The notes below the pieces were generated by a model. It saw only the letters and a program-made list of their open reading frames with translations. It was not told the origin of the DNA and did no database searches. A stretch of 64,000 nt of DNA from Candidatus Soleaferrea massiliensis AP7. GTDB lineage: Bacteria > Bacillota > Clostridia > Oscillospirales > Ruminococcaceae. Each line of letters opens with the position of its first letter. The first letter of the stretch is position 1. The stretch spans positions 1 through 64,000 of the forward strand of contig NZ_CCYH01000018.1 in assembly GCF_000820765.1 (NCBI RefSeq). Reading direction: 5' to 3'. Shown one piece after another: positions 13,009-21,648 of the stretch. A program made the position numbers and the translations under genes.

Positions 13009-14316
13009 ATGAAGAAAAAGGCAGTCGTACTAACGCTACTACTTACTTTATCAGTTTTTGCGAATTTTTTCAATACCTTTGCGGAATATAATCCGCCGTT
13101 TGAAATTTCCGCGAAGGCGGCGCTGCTGGTAAATTTGGATACCAACGAGGTGCTGTACTCCAAAAATCCGGATGAGAAGCTGTATCCGGCGTCGCTGACC
13201 AAGATCATGACGGCGATTCTGCTGATGGAAAATGTGAAGGACCTGGATGCGGAAACTGCGACAGCCAAGGACTATATTTATGAGGAATTCGTCGGCCTGG
13301 ACATCTCCACCGCGGATATCCGGCATGGAGAGACATTGACGATGAACCAGCTGCTGCACTGCATGCTCATCCAGTCCGCGAATGAAGCGGCCAGCATTGT
13401 GGCGGACAAGCTGGGGAATGGCAGCATCCCGAAATTTGTGGAGATGATGAACGCGAAGGCACAGGAAATCGGGGCGGTCAACACGCATTTCACCAACCCG
13501 CACGGCCTGTTCGATCCCGAGCAGTACACCACGGCGGAGGACCTGCGCAAGATCACGCAGTATGCGCTCAATATTCCCGGCTTTTCGGATGTCGTCAAGC
13601 AAACCCGTTATGGAATTGCGGAAACCAACAAGCACGAGGCGCGCACGCTGGTCACCACCAACCTCATGATGGATGAGGTGAACGGCGGCATGTACTACGA
13701 TTCCCGCGTTGAAGGTGTCAAGACCGGCTCGCTGCCGGAAAGCGGCAAGAATCTGATCACGACGGCGACGTCGGGCGATTACCGGTATCTGCTGATCATC
13801 CTCGGCGAGCCGATTGACGATATGCTGCATTTTACCGATACCTCCAAGCTGTATGACTGGGCGTTCGAATCGTTTGAGGATAAGGAACTGCTTTCCACCG
13901 AGAAGTCGGTGGCGCAGGTGAAGCTGGAGCTTTCCTGGGAGAAGGACCAGCTGCTGCTCTACCCGGAGCGGGGTTTTGAAGCGCTGGTTCCCAATGAAAT
14001 CGACGCAAGCTCCGTTCAGCCGGTGCCGGTGATTCCGGAAAGCGTCAAGGCCCCCATCAAGAAGGGGGAGCGCATTGGATACATCAACCTGATGCTGTCC
14101 GGCGAGCAGATCGGGCAGGTCCCGCTGGTTTCACAGGAGGATATCGGCCGGAACTTCCTGCTGTCCGCCATGGACGCGGCCACCGATATTGTGCGGTCGT
14201 TCTGGTTTAAGTTTATCGTCATCTTCCTGGTCGTGTTGCTGATCGAGTATATCGCTGTCACCATCTGGAAGAACCAGAGCCGCAAACAGCGGTACCATAA
14301 AATGACCAAACGTTAA
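13009..14316 (+). CDS. D-alanyl-D-alanine carboxypeptidase (PBP5/DacF family)
   Basis: The 435-residue exported penicillin-binding protein trims the terminal D-Ala from peptidoglycan stem peptides. It begins with a signal sequence (MKKKAVVLTLLLTLSVFANF), then the serine hydrolase motifs SLTK (active-site Ser), SAN, and KTG (in GVKTGSLPESG). A C-terminal beta-rich PBP5_C-like region is followed by a membrane helix (FWFKFIVIFLVVLLIEYIAV) and a basic tail. The start at ATG 13009 has AGGAGA upstream; an open frame extends 66 codons further but lacks an SD and the signal-peptide logic. A single gene in an unrelated context; not next to spoIIA as dacF is in Bacillus. Confidence 0.92.
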   Translation: MKKKAVVLTLLLTLSVFANFFNTFAEYNPPFEISAKAALLVNLDTNEVLYSKNPDEKLYPASLTKIMTAILLMENVKDLDAETATAKDYIYEEFVGLDISTADIRHGETLTMNQLLHCMLIQSANEAASIVADKLGNGSIPKFVEMMNAKAQEIGAVNTHFTNPHGLFDPEQYTTAEDLRKITQYALNIPGFSDVVKQTRYGIAETNKHEARTLVTTNLMMDEVNGGMYYDSRVEGVKTGSLPESGKNLITTATSGDYRYLLIILGEPIDDMLHFTDTSKLYDWAFESFEDKELLSTEKSVAQVKLELSWEKDQLLLYPERGFEALVPNEIDASSVQPVPVIPESVKAPIKKGERIGYINLMLSGEQIGQVPLVSQEDIGRNFLLSAMDAATDIVRSFWFKFIVIFLVVLLIEYIAVTIWKNQSRKQRYHKMTKR

Positions 14317-16470: not shown

Positions 16471-17388
16471 ATGTTATGTGGCGTGATCGATGTGGGTTCC
16501 AACTCCATCCGGATGTCTATTTACCGGTGTGCCGGCAATGATTTTCAGATTCTGATGAATCAAAAGACCGTTGCGGGGCTCGCATCCTATGTTACGGATA
16601 ACCGGATCAACTCGTTCGGCATCCGCAAGGCCTGCGAGGTGCTGGAAGAATATATGCGGATCCTCAAGGGATTCGGCGTCGAGACCTGCCGCGCGTTTGC
16701 GACGGCGTCGCTGCGCAATGTCCAGAACCGGGAGGAAGCGCTGCGGGAATTGAAGGAGCGTTTGGGCGTCGAGGTGGAAATCCTGTCCGGCGACGAGGAA
16801 GCGCGCCTTGGCTTTGTCGGCATGCAGCATCAGATGCAGGCGAAAGAGGGCATCATGGCGGATATCGGCGGGGCCAGCACCGAGCTGCTCTATTTTGAAG
16901 ACGGGAAAGTCCTCTATAAGGAGAGCCTGCCGGTCGGAAGCCTGTCGCTGTACAGCGGCTTTGTCAAGGCCATCTTCCCGATCGATGTGGAAAAGAAGGC
17001 GATCAAACGCGCGATTGACGAACAGCTGAGCAGGGTGATGTGGTTTTCCAGGCTCAAGACCCAGCATCTGTACGGCATCGGCGGCACGTTCCGCTCCGCG
17101 CAGAAGCTGGCACTCCAGATACTGCCCGAGGATCTGCCCGCCGACACCATTCCAACCGATGTCATACGGCATCTTTTGAAGAATTACCATCATATTGACA
17201 AAAAGATGTGCCATGAGCTGCTGCAGGTCATGCCGGAACGAATCCACACCATCCTTCCCGGGCTGATGATTCTGGAGGCGGTCGCCAGAAAGTTCAAATG
17301 CGTGGACTTCTCCGTGAGCAGCTACGGCGTGCGGGAAGGATATCTGATATCGAATCTATTGAAACAGGGGAATCATGATGAACAGTGA
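16471..17388 (+). CDS. ppx: Ppx/GppA family phosphatase (exopolyphosphatase)
   Basis: The 305-residue protein has the two actin-like-ATPase lobes of the Ppx/GppA family: DVGSNSIRMSIY (first phosphate loop), FATASLRNVQNREE, LSGDEEARLGF with the catalytic glutamates, and MADIGGASTELLYF (second loop). It lacks the C-terminal HD-like extension of E. coli Ppx, as is usual for short Firmicutes forms. It overlaps ppk1 by 14 nt, so the two are translated together. The pair would balance polyphosphate breakdown and synthesis; hydrolysis of pppGpp is an alternative activity in this family. SD GGGAGG precedes the ATG. Confidence 0.9.
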   Translation: MLCGVIDVGSNSIRMSIYRCAGNDFQILMNQKTVAGLASYVTDNRINSFGIRKACEVLEEYMRILKGFGVETCRAFATASLRNVQNREEALRELKERLGVEVEILSGDEEARLGFVGMQHQMQAKEGIMADIGGASTELLYFEDGKVLYKESLPVGSLSLYSGFVKAIFPIDVEKKAIKRAIDEQLSRVMWFSRLKTQHLYGIGGTFRSAQKLALQILPEDLPADTIPTDVIRHLLKNYHHIDKKMCHELLQVMPERIHTILPGLMILEAVARKFKCVDFSVSSYGVREGYLISNLLKQGNHDEQ

Positions 17389-19498
17389 TCTACAATGTAT
17401 GCAGAACCGGGAGCTGAGCTGGCTGAAATTCAACGAGCGTGTCCTCGAAGAGGCGAACTGCGAGGAGACGCCGCTCTATGAAAGGCTCAAGTTTATCTCG
17501 ATTTTTACAACGAATCTCGATGAGTTCTATATGGTGCGCGTGGGCAGCCTGACCGACCTGGCGCTGATGGAGCCGGATGAAATCGACAACAAGTCCGGCA
17601 TGACCCCCATAGAGCAGCTTGAAGCGATCTATGAGGCGACGGTGCCGCTGTATGCGCTTCGGGACCGGGCGCTGGGAGACATCGAAGAAAAGCTGCAGAA
17701 GCACGGCATTCAGCAGATGCGGCCAAGCGAGCTGACCACCTTCGAGCAGCACTACGCGGAGCGGTACTTCGAGGAGGAGGTCATGCCGCTGCTCTCGCCG
17801 CAGATCATCGACGTGCGGCATCCGTTCCCGCATCTGGAGAACAAGCAGCTCAATATCGCGGTGTTGCTGCGCCACAAGGGCCGCACGCTGTTCGGCATCA
17901 TACCGGTCAACCCGGCGCTCAAGCGGATCATCCAGATCCCGCAGGACAGCCTGCGCTATATGCTGGTGGAGGATCTGATCCTCTCCTATGCGGCGAAGGT
18001 GTTCGACATGTACGAGGTGGTCGAAAGTACCATCATGTGCGTAACCCGCAACGCCGACATCAACACCGACGAAGGATTCTTTGACGAGGATATGGATTAC
18101 CGGCAGCACATGCGCAAGGTCATCAAGAAGCGCGAACGCCTCGCGCCGGTGCGGCTGGAGATCCAGTCGATGATCAGCGACGAGTTTTCCGACTACCTGT
18201 GCCGCAGGCTCAACATCAAAAAGAGGCAGATCTTTGTCAGCCGCATCCCGCTGGATATGTCGTTTATCTTTTCGTTCCAGGACAGTCTGCCGCCCGCGCT
18301 CAAGCAGACGCTGCTGAATAAGCCGTTCACCCCGCAGGCCTCCGCCGGCGTCAATCCGCACGAGAGCATGACGCGGCAGGTCCTGCGCAAGGATATCTTC
18401 CTGTCCTATCCGTTCGAAAGCATGACGCCGTTTTTAAACCTGATCAAGGAGGCTGCGTCGGATGCGGCGGTCGTCTCGATCAAGATCACGCTGTACCGCA
18501 TAGCGCGCCAGTCCAAGCTGGCCGAATACCTGATCACGGCGGCCGAAAACGGCAAGGAGGTCACCGTGCTGATGGAGCTGCGCGCGCGGTTTGACGAGCA
18601 GAACAACATTGAGTGGGCGCAGCGGCTCGAGGAGGCCGGCTGCCGGGTCATCTACGGGCTTGACGGCTTCAAGGTACACTCGAAGATCTGCCTGATCACC
18701 CGCCGCGAACGCACAAAGATCCAGTACATCACCCAGATTGCCACCGGCAACTACAACGAGAGCACCGCGAAGCTCTACACCGACCTGTCGCTTCTGACCT
18801 CGAACCAGGAGATCGGAGAGGACGCCGTGTCGTTCTTCAAAAACCTCGCGCTGGGCAACCTGAACGGCCAGTACCGCCATCTGCGGGTATCGCCGTCCAG
18901 CTTAAAGCCGATGATCATGACGATGGTCGACCGCGAGATACGCAAGGCAAAATCCGGGGAAGAGGGAAGCATCTTTATGAAGATGAACTCGCTGACCGAT
19001 AAAGGCGTCATCGAAAAGCTGATTGAGGCGTCGATGGCCGGCGTGCGCGTCCAGCTGATCATCCGCGGCATCTGCTGCCTGATTCCGCAGGTGCCGGGCA
19101 GGACCGAGAACATCACGGTCATCAGCATCGTCGGGCGTTTTTTGGAGCATTCGCGCATCTACTGCTTTGGAAAGGGCGCGGACCGCAAGCTTTACATTTC
19201 CTCCGCGGACATGATGACGAGGAATACCGAACGGCGCGTCGAGATCGCCTGCCCGGTACTCGACCAGAAGATCGCGGACCGGATCATGCAGATGATCGAC
19301 ATCCAGCTGCACGACAACGTCAAAGCGCGCGAGCAGTCATCGGACGGCAGATACACGCTGCGGCAGTCGTCGGGCGGCCAGAGGGTCAACAGCCAGGAGT
19401 ATTTTATGGAGGAAGCCATCCGCAACGCGGCCCTGGTGCCGGCGGCGCCGCCGAAGAAGCACAGCCTGCTGCGAAGGCTGTTTCAGAAAAAAGGATAA
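17375..19498 (+). CDS. ppk1: Polyphosphate kinase 1
   Basis: This 707-residue PPK1 reversibly makes inorganic polyphosphate from ATP. Domains in order: N-terminal (NRELSWLKFNERVLEEA), head domain, then two phospholipase-D-like catalytic domains. The two essential histidines can be read at residue 435 (GFKVHSKICL) and 592 (RFLEHSRIYCF), the same numbers as in the E. coli enzyme. LYRIARQSKLAEYL and ATGNYNESTAKLYTD are further PPK signatures. The start is the first of two adjacent ATG codons, overlapping the end of ppx. A basic tail (KKHSLLRRLFQKKG) closes the protein. Confidence 0.96.
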   Translation: MMNSDLQCMQNRELSWLKFNERVLEEANCEETPLYERLKFISIFTTNLDEFYMVRVGSLTDLALMEPDEIDNKSGMTPIEQLEAIYEATVPLYALRDRALGDIEEKLQKHGIQQMRPSELTTFEQHYAERYFEEEVMPLLSPQIIDVRHPFPHLENKQLNIAVLLRHKGRTLFGIIPVNPALKRIIQIPQDSLRYMLVEDLILSYAAKVFDMYEVVESTIMCVTRNADINTDEGFFDEDMDYRQHMRKVIKKRERLAPVRLEIQSMISDEFSDYLCRRLNIKKRQIFVSRIPLDMSFIFSFQDSLPPALKQTLLNKPFTPQASAGVNPHESMTRQVLRKDIFLSYPFESMTPFLNLIKEAASDAAVVSIKITLYRIARQSKLAEYLITAAENGKEVTVLMELRARFDEQNNIEWAQRLEEAGCRVIYGLDGFKVHSKICLITRRERTKIQYITQIATGNYNESTAKLYTDLSLLTSNQEIGEDAVSFFKNLALGNLNGQYRHLRVSPSSLKPMIMTMVDREIRKAKSGEEGSIFMKMNSLTDKGVIEKLIEASMAGVRVQLIIRGICCLIPQVPGRTENITVISIVGRFLEHSRIYCFGKGADRKLYISSADMMTRNTERRVEIACPVLDQKIADRIMQMIDIQLHDNVKAREQSSDGRYTLRQSSGGQRVNSQEYFMEEAIRNAALVPAAPPKKHSLLRRLFQKKG

Positions 19499-19876
19499 TC
19501 TCACAGAAGAGGGCAGCGTCCGAAAAACGGGGACTGCCGTCTCCTGTTTTTTATATGGTAAGATACGCGGTAGAAGGGCCGAACATGTATTGCCAATTGG
19601 CGGAGAACGGCCGTATCCATGCAGCGGTATAACGGCGGTATGCAGATGGAAGCGGCTTGTTTTCCGGATGCAGCACGCTGCTGTGAGAAAGCCGCATTTT
19701 GCGCGGTTCGGGGAAACGGTAAAGAATGTTACATAGTTATTAATTTAACAACAAGTTCCGTCAGGACACTTGCGAAAGTCGTCAAAAAATATTATAATGG
19801 GTAGGAAGTTGAGATATCAACGCTCTTTTGAGAAGGATAACACCAAAAATATAAAAGCGGGAGGAGTTACCTAGAT
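19499..19876. other. Intergenic region between ppk1 and the NifU-like gene
   Basis: A GC-rich hairpin with a bulge (about 19512-19538) followed by CTCCTGTTTTTT probably terminates ppx-ppk1. The middle ~220 bp has no supported gene. A promoter TTGCGA (19770-19775), 17 bp, TATAAT (19793-19798) drives the NifU-like/GGGtGRT pair, with a GGGAGGAG ribosome binding site near 19860. Confidence 0.7.
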
Positions 19877-20569
19877 ATGACGTATTCTCATGAAGTAGAG
19901 AACATGTGCGTTCTCGCAAAAGGTCCGAATCACGGACCGGCACCAATTCCTGAAGAAGGCAAATGGGTAAAAGCGTATCAGATCACCGACATTTCCGGTC
20001 TTTCCCACGGTGTGGGCTGGTGTGCGCCGCAGCAGGGCGCATGTAAGCTGACCCTGAATGTCAAGGATGGTATCATCGAAGAGGCTCTGGTGGAAACCCT
20101 GGGCTGTTCCGGTATGACCCATTCCGCAGCGATGGCGGCTGAAATCCTGCCGGGCAAAACGATGCTCGAGGCACTGAACACCGACCTTGTCTGCGACGCG
20201 ATCAACGTTGCCATGCGCGAAATCTTCAAACAGCTGGTATACGGCAGAAGCCAGACCGCGTTCTCCGAAGGCGGCCTGCCGGTCGGCGCCGGTCTGGAGG
20301 ATTTGGGAAAAGGACTCCGTTCCCAGGTTGGAACCATGTTCAGCACCAAAGCAAAGGGCGTCCGCTATCTGGAAATGGCGGAGGGCTACATCCTGAACAT
20401 CGCTGTCGATGAGAACGATGAGGTCATCGGCTACAAATTCGTCAAGCTCGGCAAAATGCTTGAGGACATCCGTCACGGTGCCAATCCGGCCGAAGCGTAT
20501 GAGAAGAACATCGGTACCTATGGACGTTATGACGGCGCTGCCAAGTATATCGACCCGAGAGAAGAATAA
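19877..20569 (+). CDS. NifU-like iron-sulfur scaffold-type protein paired with GGGtGRT protein
   Basis: This 230-residue protein resembles the NifU/IscU N-terminal scaffold domain. The core GACKLTLNVKDGIIEEALVE is followed by TLGCSGMTHSAAMAAEIL, with cysteines at 49, 56, 77 and 106; C77 and C106 fit the scaffold spacing. About 45 residues precede the core and a ~90-residue C-terminal part (GLEDLGKGLRSQVGTMFSTK, GYKFVKLGKMLEDIRHGANP) is not present in IscU. It lies 25 bp before the GGGtGRT gene under the promoter at 19770. By family knowledge the two genes are found together in anaerobes, but their joint function is not established. No sulfurtransferase gene is adjacent. Confidence 0.8.
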   Translation: MTYSHEVENMCVLAKGPNHGPAPIPEEGKWVKAYQITDISGLSHGVGWCAPQQGACKLTLNVKDGIIEEALVETLGCSGMTHSAAMAAEILPGKTMLEALNTDLVCDAINVAMREIFKQLVYGRSQTAFSEGGLPVGAGLEDLGKGLRSQVGTMFSTKAKGVRYLEMAEGYILNIAVDENDEVIGYKFVKLGKMLEDIRHGANPAEAYEKNIGTYGRYDGAAKYIDPREE

Positions 20570-20594
20570 TTGAAAGGATAGGAGGTACTGAATT

Positions 20595-21593
20595 ATGGCT
20601 CAATTCGAAGGAAAAGAAAGAAGAATGGCAAAAATTGAGGCATGTCTGAAGGAATATGGTTTCAGCAGCCTTGAGGATGCCCGTGATCTTTGCTTAAGCA
20701 AAAATATTGATGTAGAGGCGATTGTCAAAGGTGTTCAGCCTATCGCTTTTGAGAATGCTTGCTGGGCGTATACCCTCGGCGTTGCAATTGCGCTGAAAAA
20801 GGGCATCGACAAAGCTGCCGACGCTGCCGAAGCGATCGGTATCGGCCTGCAGGCGTTTTGTATCCCGGGTTCGGTCGCGGAACAGAGAAACGTTGGACAG
20901 GGCCACGGAAATCTCGGCGCCATGCTGCTGAGAGAAGAGACCAAATGCTTCTGCTTCCTGGCTGGACATGAGTCCTTCGCCGCTGCAGAGGGCGCGATCG
21001 GTATCGCGAGAACCGCAAACAAAGCGCGTAAAGAACCGCTGCGCGTCATCCTGAACGGACTTGGCAAGGATGCCGCGTACATCATTTCGAGAATCAACGG
21101 CTTCACCTATGTGGAGACCGATTATGACTTCGCCACCGGCGAGCTGAATGTCGTCCGTGAGGTCGCGTTCTCCGACGGCGACAAGGCGAAGGTAAAATGC
21201 TACGGCGCGAACGACGTGCTCGAAGGCGTTGCGGTCATGAAAAAGGAAAAGGTCGACGTTTCCATCACCGGAAACTCCACCAACCCGACAAGGTTCCAGC
21301 ATCTGGTTGCCGGTACCTATAAGAAATGGTCCTATGAGAACGACGTCAAATACTTCTCGGTTGCTTCCGGCGGCGGTACGGGACGTACGCTGCATCCGGA
21401 CAACATGGCGGCAGGCCCGGCTTCCTACGGTCTGACCGATTCGATGGGACGTATGCACGGCGACGCTCAGTTCGCCGGATCCTCCTCCGTTCCGGCGCAT
21501 GTCGAGATGATGGGACTCATCGGCATGGGCAACAACCCGATGGTCGGCGCTACCGTGGCGTGCGCGGTTGCGGTTGAAGAAGCAGGCAAATAA
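20595..21593 (+). CDS. GGGtGRT family protein
   Basis: This 332-residue protein carries the family's name-giving motif at residues 259-265 (VASGGGTGRT). Other notable blocks are LCLSKNIDVEAIVKGVQPI, IPGSVAEQRNVGQGHGNLGA, EETKCFCFLAGHESFAAAEG, SITGNSTNPTRFQHLVAGTY and GMGNNPMVGATVACAVAVEE. It has several cysteines (FENACWAY, KCFCFLA) but no recognised cofactor motif. Abundant glycines and the phosphate-loop-like motif suggest a nucleotide or phosphate ligand; this is inference. SD AGGAGG precedes the ATG. It is translated with the NifU-like gene and followed by a strong terminator. Function is unknown. Confidence 0.85.
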   Translation: MAQFEGKERRMAKIEACLKEYGFSSLEDARDLCLSKNIDVEAIVKGVQPIAFENACWAYTLGVAIALKKGIDKAADAAEAIGIGLQAFCIPGSVAEQRNVGQGHGNLGAMLLREETKCFCFLAGHESFAAAEGAIGIARTANKARKEPLRVILNGLGKDAAYIISRINGFTYVETDYDFATGELNVVREVAFSDGDKAKVKCYGANDVLEGVAVMKKEKVDVSITGNSTNPTRFQHLVAGTYKKWSYENDVKYFSVASGGGTGRTLHPDNMAAGPASYGLTDSMGRMHGDAQFAGSSSVPAHVEMMGLIGMGNNPMVGATVACAVAVEEAGK

Positions 21594-21606
21594 GCGTTGA
21601 ATTATG

Positions 21607-21648
21607 ACTGCCCATTACCTGTTTTTCAGGTAATGGGCAGTTTTATTT
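21607..21648 (+). terminator. Intrinsic terminator of the NifU-like/GGGtGRT operon
   Basis: A perfect 15-bp stem (ACTGCCCATTACCTG with its complement) with a T5 loop, followed by TTTATTT. Confidence 0.95.

What the first reader, a model, noticed from the sequence alone, without database searches (positions are those of the whole stretch)
19877..21593. NifU-like scaffold plus GGGtGRT protein: a two-gene system of unknown function
The pair has its own promoter and terminator. The first protein keeps scaffold-type cysteines (49, 56, 77, 106) but has an extra ~90-residue C-terminal domain. The second has the GGGTGRT loop and is otherwise uncharacterised. Together they may build or use an iron-sulfur or other metal/sulfur centre.
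Basis: partly seen in the sequence, partly recalled or inferred. Interest (0 to 1): 0.65.

Follow-up and report, generated by a model that had tools for sequence, protein, structure and literature searches.

The report
Iron-linked NifU-like/GGGtGRT protein pair
Two neighbouring genes, found together in many gut bacteria and (in two relatives tested by others) made less when iron is scarce, encode a relative of iron-sulfur assembly proteins and a partner of unknown function; they probably form one iron-sulfur-dependent unit whose job is not yet known.

Summary
ORF 19877-20569 has an IscU/NifU-type core; ORF 20595-21593 is a full-length PF14057 (GGGtGRT) member; promoter-like and terminator-like sites flank the pair.

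The genes are adjacent in 119 of 125 loci examined (118 distinct); five of the other six are cut by contig ends and one has a masked stretch. No third neighbour is conserved. By record title the unit occurs in Bacillota, Bacteroidota, Actinomycetota, Pseudomonadota, Elusimicrobiota and Gastranaerophilales.

Cys49, 77 and 106 are kept in 121 of 121 homologues, Cys56 in 119. The partner has no invariant cysteine, so it is unlikely to hold a cysteine-ligated cluster itself. The genome also has an ordinary IscU and a SufB-like protein, so this is not the housekeeping scaffold.

Published tables for likely orthologues show both proteins lower in iron limitation in Clostridium pasteurianum (1.6- to 7.1-fold) and both genes in Bacteroides thetaiotaomicron (11- to 12.8-fold), the pattern of an iron-containing end product.

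Best reading: an abundant two-protein Fe-S module with the cluster on the IscU-like subunit. Metal content, complex and reaction are untested.

Separately, the 3' end of the GGGtGRT gene is an integration site for phages and other integrase-bearing elements.

The parts
19770..19798 (+). sigma-70/A-type promoter-like site, TTGCGA-17-TATAAT
   Evidence: 10 of 12 consensus positions; consensus match only
19877..20569 (+). NifU/IscU-like protein, 230 aa: IscU-type core about residues 40-125, extra C-terminal part about 128-230
20021..20023 (+). codon of Cys49, kept in 121 of 121 homologues
20042..20044 (+). codon of Cys56, kept in 119 of 121
20105..20107 (+). codon of Cys77 (aligns with the Gly-Cys cysteine of IscU), kept in 121 of 121
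20192..20194 (+). codon of Cys106, just before the last core helix (107-122) of the model, kept in 121 of 121
20595..21593 (+). GGGtGRT protein (PF14057), 332 aa, helical N-terminal part plus Rossmann-like alpha/beta part
21369..21389 (+). GGGTGRT motif, residues 259-265, at the edge of a low-confidence loop of the model
21498..21593 (+). 3' end of the GGGtGRT gene (about residues 302-332), the segment used as attachment site by mobile elements in other genomes; unoccupied here
21606..21642 (+). intrinsic terminator-like hairpin, 16-pair stem, T-rich tail
   Evidence: consensus match only

Best explanation
An abundant, iron-sufficiency-linked two-protein module. The IscU-fold protein (NifU-like) holds an iron-sulfur (or iron) centre through Cys49, Cys77 and Cys106, with Cys56 usually as a fourth ligand. 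It works in constant partnership with the GGGtGRT protein, a Rossmann-like alpha/beta protein with many invariant His, Asp, Glu, Arg, Asn and Ser residues and no invariant cysteine. The GGGtGRT protein is therefore more likely the substrate-binding or catalytic subunit than an apo-protein waiting for a cysteine-ligated cluster. Shown here: core fold (by prediction), cysteine pattern, constant pairing, presence beside IscU and Suf-like genes. Shown by others for likely orthologues: both partners go down when iron is short. Inferred: that a cluster is bound, that the two proteins touch, that the unit is an enzyme.
For: Core fold: the 23 best structural matches are IscU or SufU chains (5wlw_H Z 8.2, rmsd 2.0 over 85 residues); hhalign to 30 IscU sequences from related genomes 96%, E 4.8e-9. 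Cysteines: Cys49/77/106 in 121 of 121, Cys56 in 119 (119 distinct sequences). Partner: no invariant Cys in 26 or 123 sequences, with 111 invariant positions (gaps left out). Pairing, recounted with both proteins matched over 200 residues or more: 119 of 125 loci, 118 distinct: 20 of 20 loci fetched from 46 positive relatives, 2 of 3 virus-collection records, 17 of 18 phylum loci, 76 of 80 named loci, 4 of 4 fetched out of 10 plasmid-collection records. The six others: L023, L046, L100, L110, L114 are cut by contig or record ends, L062 holds a masked stretch. In 61 genomes 32 weak NifU_N hits of this subfamily fall in PF14057-positive genomes, none in the 15 negative ones; the other 14 of 46 positive genomes gave no weak hit at E 0.001. 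Not housekeeping: own genome has a canonical NifU_N protein (168 bits) and a SufBD protein (94 bits). Iron: C. pasteurianum GGGtGRT 7.1x (early) and 2.2x (late), NifU-related protein 2.4 and 3.7x (early) and 1.6 and 2.9x (late) higher in iron excess, Table 2 of PMC5395762; B. thetaiotaomicron BT0173-BT0174 down 11- to 12.8-fold in iron depletion, Table 6 of PMC10434189. Abundance: GGGtGRT called highly expressed in vivo in several gut genera (PMC11204068, passages); codon bias.
Against: No metal, sulfur or complex has been measured. IscU's APxCGD motif is replaced, and in the profile alignment IscU's third cysteine falls in a gap, so the match of Cys106 to it is inferred from the model only. 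The profile match is confident over only 47 columns, Pfam's hit is exactly at its cut-off, and the NifU-like model is of modest quality (mean pLDDT 62.8). Falling with iron limitation is shared by many proteins, including some ribosomal proteins in the same C. pasteurianum table. That the published proteins are orthologues rests on names and adjacent locus tags. No conserved neighbour hints at a substrate. No known fold matches the partner convincingly.
Confidence: 0.55

Rival explanations
1. A dedicated scaffold/carrier system: the NifU-like protein builds a cluster transiently and the GGGtGRT protein is its helper or delivery factor for some other client.
For: IscU-type core and three invariant cysteines; exists beside housekeeping systems, so could serve a special client.
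Against: Biogenesis factors are usually needed in small amounts and (recalled, E. coli IscR/Fur control) rise, not fall, in iron limitation; here both partners fall and GGGtGRT is called highly expressed. No gene travels with the pair (58 of 80 named loci). The segment where IscU carries LPPVK falls in an alignment gap (low confidence).
Confidence: 0.2
2. An iron/sulfide buffer or store: the pair accumulates in iron excess to hold Fe-S or iron in safe form.
For: Lower in iron limitation in two phyla and abundant; ferritin and a rubrerythrin are also down-regulated, 2.7- to 3-fold, in the B. thetaiotaomicron study.
Against: Nothing in the sequence suggests a cage or polymer; one compact site of at most four cysteines per chain; the strong conservation of the partner (111 invariant positions of 332 in 123 sequences) looks catalytic.
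Confidence: 0.1
3. A zinc-dependent persulfide-transfer unit, SufU-like, handing sulfur to or from the GGGtGRT protein.
For: SufU shares the fold (6jzv_A Z 7.0, rmsd 1.9 over 79 residues) and also uses three cysteines (recalled).
Against: No conserved neighbour gene of any kind beside the pair, so no desulfurase; weaker profile match to SufU (18.9 bits) than to NifU or IscU (25.5 and 22.0), all far below their cut-offs; SufU's Asp ligand (recalled) has no clear counterpart.
Confidence: 0.1
4. The IscU-like protein is a metal-free structural or regulatory subunit; the module is an ordinary enzyme whose levels merely follow iron-dependent metabolism.
For: IscU's APxCGD motif is lost and the core is shortened; iron limitation lowers many proteins in both published datasets.
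Against: Three cysteines kept in 121 of 121 sequences, by record title from at least six phyla, are hard to explain without a ligand or redox role.
Confidence: 0.05

Closest known systems
IscU / NifU N-terminal domain (PF01592) Fe-S scaffold
   Same: Core fold (Z about 8, rmsd 2.0 over 85 residues), Gly-Cys motif (Cys77), a cysteine (Cys106) just before the last core helix of the model.
   Different: CAPQQGxC in place of APxCGD; an 18-column gap opposite IscU's LPPVK and His-Cys segment (low-confidence part of the alignment, so Cys106 is matched to IscU's third cysteine by the model only); extra C-terminal part of about 100 residues; no conserved desulfurase neighbour; constant PF14057 partner.
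GGGtGRT protein family, PF14057
   Same: Full-length member, 644 bits.
   Different: Nothing found; an ordinary member. I know of no assigned function, and no solved relative was found by sequence.
SufU zinc-dependent sulfurtransferase
   Same: Same fold class, three cysteines (recalled for SufU).
   Different: Lower scores than to IscU and NifU, no conserved desulfurase neighbour, different cysteine spacing.
SIS-domain sugar isomerases (GmhA type), for the partner only
   Same: Weak structural resemblance along the model (2i2w_B Z 8.7, rmsd 5.0, 153 residues) and a GNSxN loop aligned to the SIS phosphosugar loop.
   Different: Profile comparison does not support kinship (best hhalign probability 8.5%, the other SIS sets under 1%; the control UDP-GlcNAc 2-epimerase set reached 1.6%); UDP-GlcNAc 2-epimerase structures score the same (Z 8.8).

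Membership tests
IscU/NifU_N Fe-S scaffold | IscU fold of the core | tested here: met
   the 23 best chains are IscU or SufU, Z up to 8.3, on a model of modest quality; hhalign 96% over 47 columns
IscU/NifU_N Fe-S scaffold | Three conserved cysteines at IscU's positions | tested here: inconclusive
   Cys49, 77, 106 kept in 121 of 121; only Cys77 aligns with an IscU cysteine, the first is displaced and IscU's third lies in a gap
IscU/NifU_N Fe-S scaffold | Asp two residues after the first cysteine (APxCGD) | tested here: not met
   CAPQQGAC in place of APxCGD; the role of the Asp is recalled. The 30 IscU rows were picked by carrying CGD
IscU/NifU_N Fe-S scaffold | LPPVK-type chaperone-binding segment before the last cysteine | tested here: not met
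   18-column gap opposite this segment (low-confidence part); role recalled
IscU/NifU_N Fe-S scaffold | Reaches the NCBIfam equivalog cut-offs | tested here: not met
   NifU_clost 25.5 of 187.9 bits, iscU 22 of 192.4, NifU_proper 13.7 of 273.3
IscU/NifU_N Fe-S scaffold | Builds and transfers a cluster | not testable with these tools
   needs anaerobic biochemistry
SufU | NCBIfam SUF_scaf_2 cut-off | tested here: not met
   18.9 of 92.5 bits
PF14057 GGGtGRT | Full-length profile match above cut-off | tested here: met
   644 bits, cut-off 27, positions 1-327 of 327
SIS-domain proteins (partner) | Profile similarity to SIS_2 / GmhA | tested here: not met
   hhalign probability 0.2-8.5%; no SIS family among Pfam hits of 26 members
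SIS-domain proteins (partner) | SIS fold | tested here: inconclusive
   Z 8.7, rmsd 5.0, tied with other Rossmann-type folds
Anti-phage defence system | PADLOC model match | tested here: not met
   0 families for both proteins at E 0.1

The most novel reading that the evidence does not exclude
The pair is an undescribed two-subunit iron-sulfur enzyme of anaerobic metabolism, abundant in gut bacteria and mislabelled 'nitrogen-fixing protein NifU', in which an IscU fold has been turned from a transient scaffold into a permanent cofactor-bearing subunit for a new alpha/beta enzyme family.
Probability: 0.35. Interest if true: 0.85.

Novelty: new variant of a known kind. Interest (0 to 1): 0.55.

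Why it matters
Genes so named are filed under nitrogen metabolism (PMC10434189; a rumen study, PMC6043501, does so for 'nitrogen-fixing protein NifU', though whether that is this family was not checked), and a virulence-factor screen lists GGGtGRT (PMC9942572). If the IscU fold serves here as a permanent cofactor subunit, that would be a new use of the fold. The question is directly testable in Bacteroides thetaiotaomicron (BT0173-BT0174), which has laboratory genetics.

Tried and rejected
SIS-domain (phosphosugar isomerase) kinship of the GGGtGRT protein: suggested by GmhA, MurNAc-6-P etherase, GlmS and ketose/aldose isomerase chains and by the GNSxN loop; tested with profile comparisons against GmhA-like, RpiR-like and GlmS sets and SIS_2, GmhA, GlmS and RpiR-like sets with UDP-GlcNAc 2-epimerase and IscU as controls. 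Best 8.5% with a mixed set of 8 sequences, 0.4% with a cleaner GmhA set of 7; the epimerase control gave 1.6%. Not claimed.

C-terminal part of the NifU-like protein as a degenerate second IscU-like repeat: hhalign placed it in register with IscU but at 1.1-1.4% probability, and 0.2% against its own N-terminal part. Not claimed.

Conserved third gene: none among 58 of the 80 named loci (22 dropped because the greedy gene picker did not keep the GGGtGRT frame); the largest neighbour cluster apart from the pair was in 12 loci at scattered positions. In Parabacteroides a 63-aa ORF with a membrane-like sequence lies between the two genes; in the 7 loci with gaps above 60 bp listed I saw no equivalent.

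Conserved operator upstream: k-mer and inverted-repeat counts over 113 upstream regions gave only A+T-rich words, some like TATAAT. Rfam: nothing at gathering strength, weak matches only. Defence: none. The only PDB sequence match to the GGGtGRT profile up to E 10 was guanylyl cyclase, E 0.14, taken as chance. Gene tree: labels cluster by phylum with a few misplacements; it proves no transfer.

Full report
What is there. The window carries, on the + strand, a 230-aa ORF at 19877-20569 and, 25 bp downstream, a 332-aa ORF at 20595-21593. A promoter-like site (19770-19798, 10 of 12 positions) precedes them and a 16-pair terminator-like hairpin (21606-21642) follows. Upstream lie ppx- and ppk-type genes (16471-19498) and downstream an HTH_3 ORF and a GntR-type regulator. 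Both genes have codon bias on the strong side for their third-position GC: Nc 39 against 39.2-51.7 for the 9 of 22 hand-picked window ORFs with GC3 0.59-0.69.

Families. The second protein is a full-length PF14057 (GGGtGRT) member, 644 bits; the first hits NifU_N at the cut-off, 22 bits over residues 56-102, and falls far below the NCBIfam cut-offs for IscU, NifU and SufU. PDB sequence searches give IscU/NifU for the first protein (best E 4.8e-5 with the profile) and nothing useful for the second.

Folds. AlphaFold2 models: GGGtGRT mean pLDDT 84.3, pTM 0.84, with residues 261-268 and 270-277 below 50; NifU-like 62.8, pTM 0.49, with the core better and the N terminus and 123-151 poor. The NifU-like core (residues 40-125) matches IscU structures best (Z up to 8.3; 5wlw_H Z 8.2, rmsd 2.0, 85 residues). 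The GGGtGRT protein is a Rossmann-like alpha/beta protein with a helical N-terminal part; Foldseek finds nothing at E 0.001 or better, and VIA-align gives a tie of UDP-GlcNAc 2-epimerases (Z 8.8), SIS isomerases (Z 8.7, rmsd 5.0) and other Rossmann-type folds, a level that the tool's notes call common.

Cysteines. In 26 homologues all four named cysteines are invariant. With 121 sequences (119 distinct), Cys49, 77 and 106 are invariant and Cys56 is replaced in two, one of them a Vibrio. Against 30 IscU sequences from related genomes (picked by the PRN and CGD motifs) and PDB IscU, Cys77 aligns with the Gly-Cys cysteine. The APxCGD motif is replaced by CAPQQGxC, so Cys49 and Cys56 flank the place of the first IscU cysteine. 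Opposite IscU's LPPVK-type and His-Cys segment there is an 18-column gap, in a low-confidence part of the alignment; Cys106 is thus not aligned with IscU's third cysteine by profile, but the model starts its last core helix at residue 107, as IscU does after its third cysteine (recalled). In the GGGtGRT protein no cysteine is invariant, while 111 positions of 332 are invariant over 123 sequences (gaps left out), among them His104, His125, Glu126, Glu132, Lys158, Asp159, Asn227, Arg233, His236, Arg264, Asp269, Asp282, Arg286, Asp290, Ser296-298 and His302.

Partnership and spread. PF14057 is in 46 of 61 genomes around and including the window's, 19 of 299 over the phylum, the window's included, and 1 of 14 control genomes (Bacteroides). 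Recounted with both proteins matched over at least 200 residues, the NifU-like gene lies directly upstream in 119 of 125 loci, 118 distinct: 20 of 20 fetched relatives, 2 of 3 virus-collection records, 17 of 18 phylum loci, 76 of 80 named loci, and 4 of 4 records fetched (Vibrio, Persicobacter, Parabacteroides, Collinsella) out of 10 matching in the plasmid collection. L023, L046, L100, L110 and L114 are cut by contig or record ends and L062 holds a masked stretch. In one search most gaps were 10-30 bp. In 61 genomes the 32 weak NifU_N hits that mark this subfamily fall only in PF14057-positive genomes; 14 positive genomes gave no such hit at E 0.001. No third gene is conserved around the pair in the 58 named loci analysed. 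In the window's genome a canonical NifU_N protein (168 bits) and one SufBD protein (94 bits) exist besides; of the 46 positive relatives, 39 also have a strong NifU_N hit (58 bits or more) and 7 have none. The pair is therefore an additional, self-contained unit.

Iron. The literature library holds 9 papers with the word GGGtGRT. I read passages of five and only the listing of the other four; none of the nine appears to study the protein. Two carry telling data in tables. In C. pasteurianum, GGGtGRT protein F502_05012 was 7.1-fold (early) and 2.2-fold (late) higher in iron excess, and F502_05017 (NifU-related) 2.4- and 3.7-fold in two spots early, 1.6- and 2.9-fold late (PMC5395762, section 11 read; the main text names NifU and these tags only in the table). 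In B. thetaiotaomicron, BT0173-BT0174 fell 11- to 12.8-fold in iron depletion, P given as 0 (PMC10434189, passages); its text mentions only NifU, under nitrogen metabolism. That these are orthologues rests on names and adjacent locus tags; I did not fetch those genomes. A Parabacteroides pair is 75% (NifU-like) and 76% (GGGtGRT) identical to the window's. The direction, down with less iron, is that of PFOR and rubrerythrin in C. pasteurianum and of ferritin and rubrerythrin in B. thetaiotaomicron, and not that of a starvation-induced biogenesis system (recalled); some ribosomal proteins also fall. GGGtGRT protein is called highly expressed in vivo in several gut genera (PMC11204068, passages), and rumen proteomics lists GGGtGRT and NifU by name (PMC7035244 and PMC6043501, passages).

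Interpretation. An iron-linked, apparently abundant module with an IscU-type cysteine site on one subunit and an enzyme-like conserved, invariant-cysteine-free partner is best explained as a two-subunit Fe-S-dependent unit, with the cluster on the IscU-like partner. Metal, complex and reaction are not shown.

Side finding. The 3' end of the GGGtGRT gene is an attachment site. Tyrosine integrase genes (phmmer with four integrases, all four PF00589) lie 7-350 bp beyond the stop in L002 (a 96-aa piece), L021, L022, L023, L062, L101, L120 and L189, and three viral contigs (L025, L026, L028) have the gene's last codons at one end followed by an integrase gene. Extra copies of the last 30 or so codons were found in 5 of 15 genomes or records searched (G369, G371, G001, G022, G014); in the genomes of L002 and L101 (G052, G370) no second copy was found. 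In L062 the gene end is repeated about 6.6 kb away (38 nt at 97% and 63 nt at 89%) with an integrase 55 bp after the gene. In the 80 named loci (1,267,840 bases) 3 of 7 integrase hits lie within 400 bp downstream of the gene, a zone of 31,231 bases; one of the three is itself a query (L101) and the queries were chosen from such sites, so this enrichment is biased upward. The window's own site looks unoccupied: one PF14057 match only in its genome. Whether this is in print is not settled: the 9 papers were not all read, and the combined search with phage terms showed only 5 of 4,638 papers, none holding GGGtGRT.

Noticed in passing
window 21498-21593 (site); L062:7139-7293 and 13743-13836; L002, L021, L022, L023, L025, L026, L028, L101, L120, L189: The 3' end of the GGGtGRT gene is an integration site for phages and other elements with tyrosine integrases; in 5 of 15 genomes or records the last ~30 codons occur a second time. 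Unoccupied in the window.
   Followed up: partly
L188:2690-11138: In genome G001 an 8.4-kb stretch with large secreted-type proteins lies between the GGGtGRT gene and a duplicated gene end, with no hit to the four integrase queries: perhaps a decayed or non-autonomous element.
   Followed up: no
L047 (genome G266): A second, divergent NifU-like/GGGtGRT pair (61% identical in GGGtGRT) in a genome that also has a closer copy (L041), hinting at subfamilies.
   Followed up: no
L259:7800-7991: In Parabacteroides a 63-aa ORF with a membrane-like sequence lies between the two genes; not seen in the 7 wide-gap loci listed.
   Followed up: partly
window 16471-19498: ppx- and ppk-type genes (polyphosphate metabolism) overlap by 14 bp just upstream of the pair.
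   Followed up: no
literature: Genes so named are filed under nitrogen metabolism (PMC10434189, PMC6043501) and GGGtGRT appears in a virulence-factor screen (PMC9942572), apparently because of names or automatic scoring (passages).
   Followed up: partly
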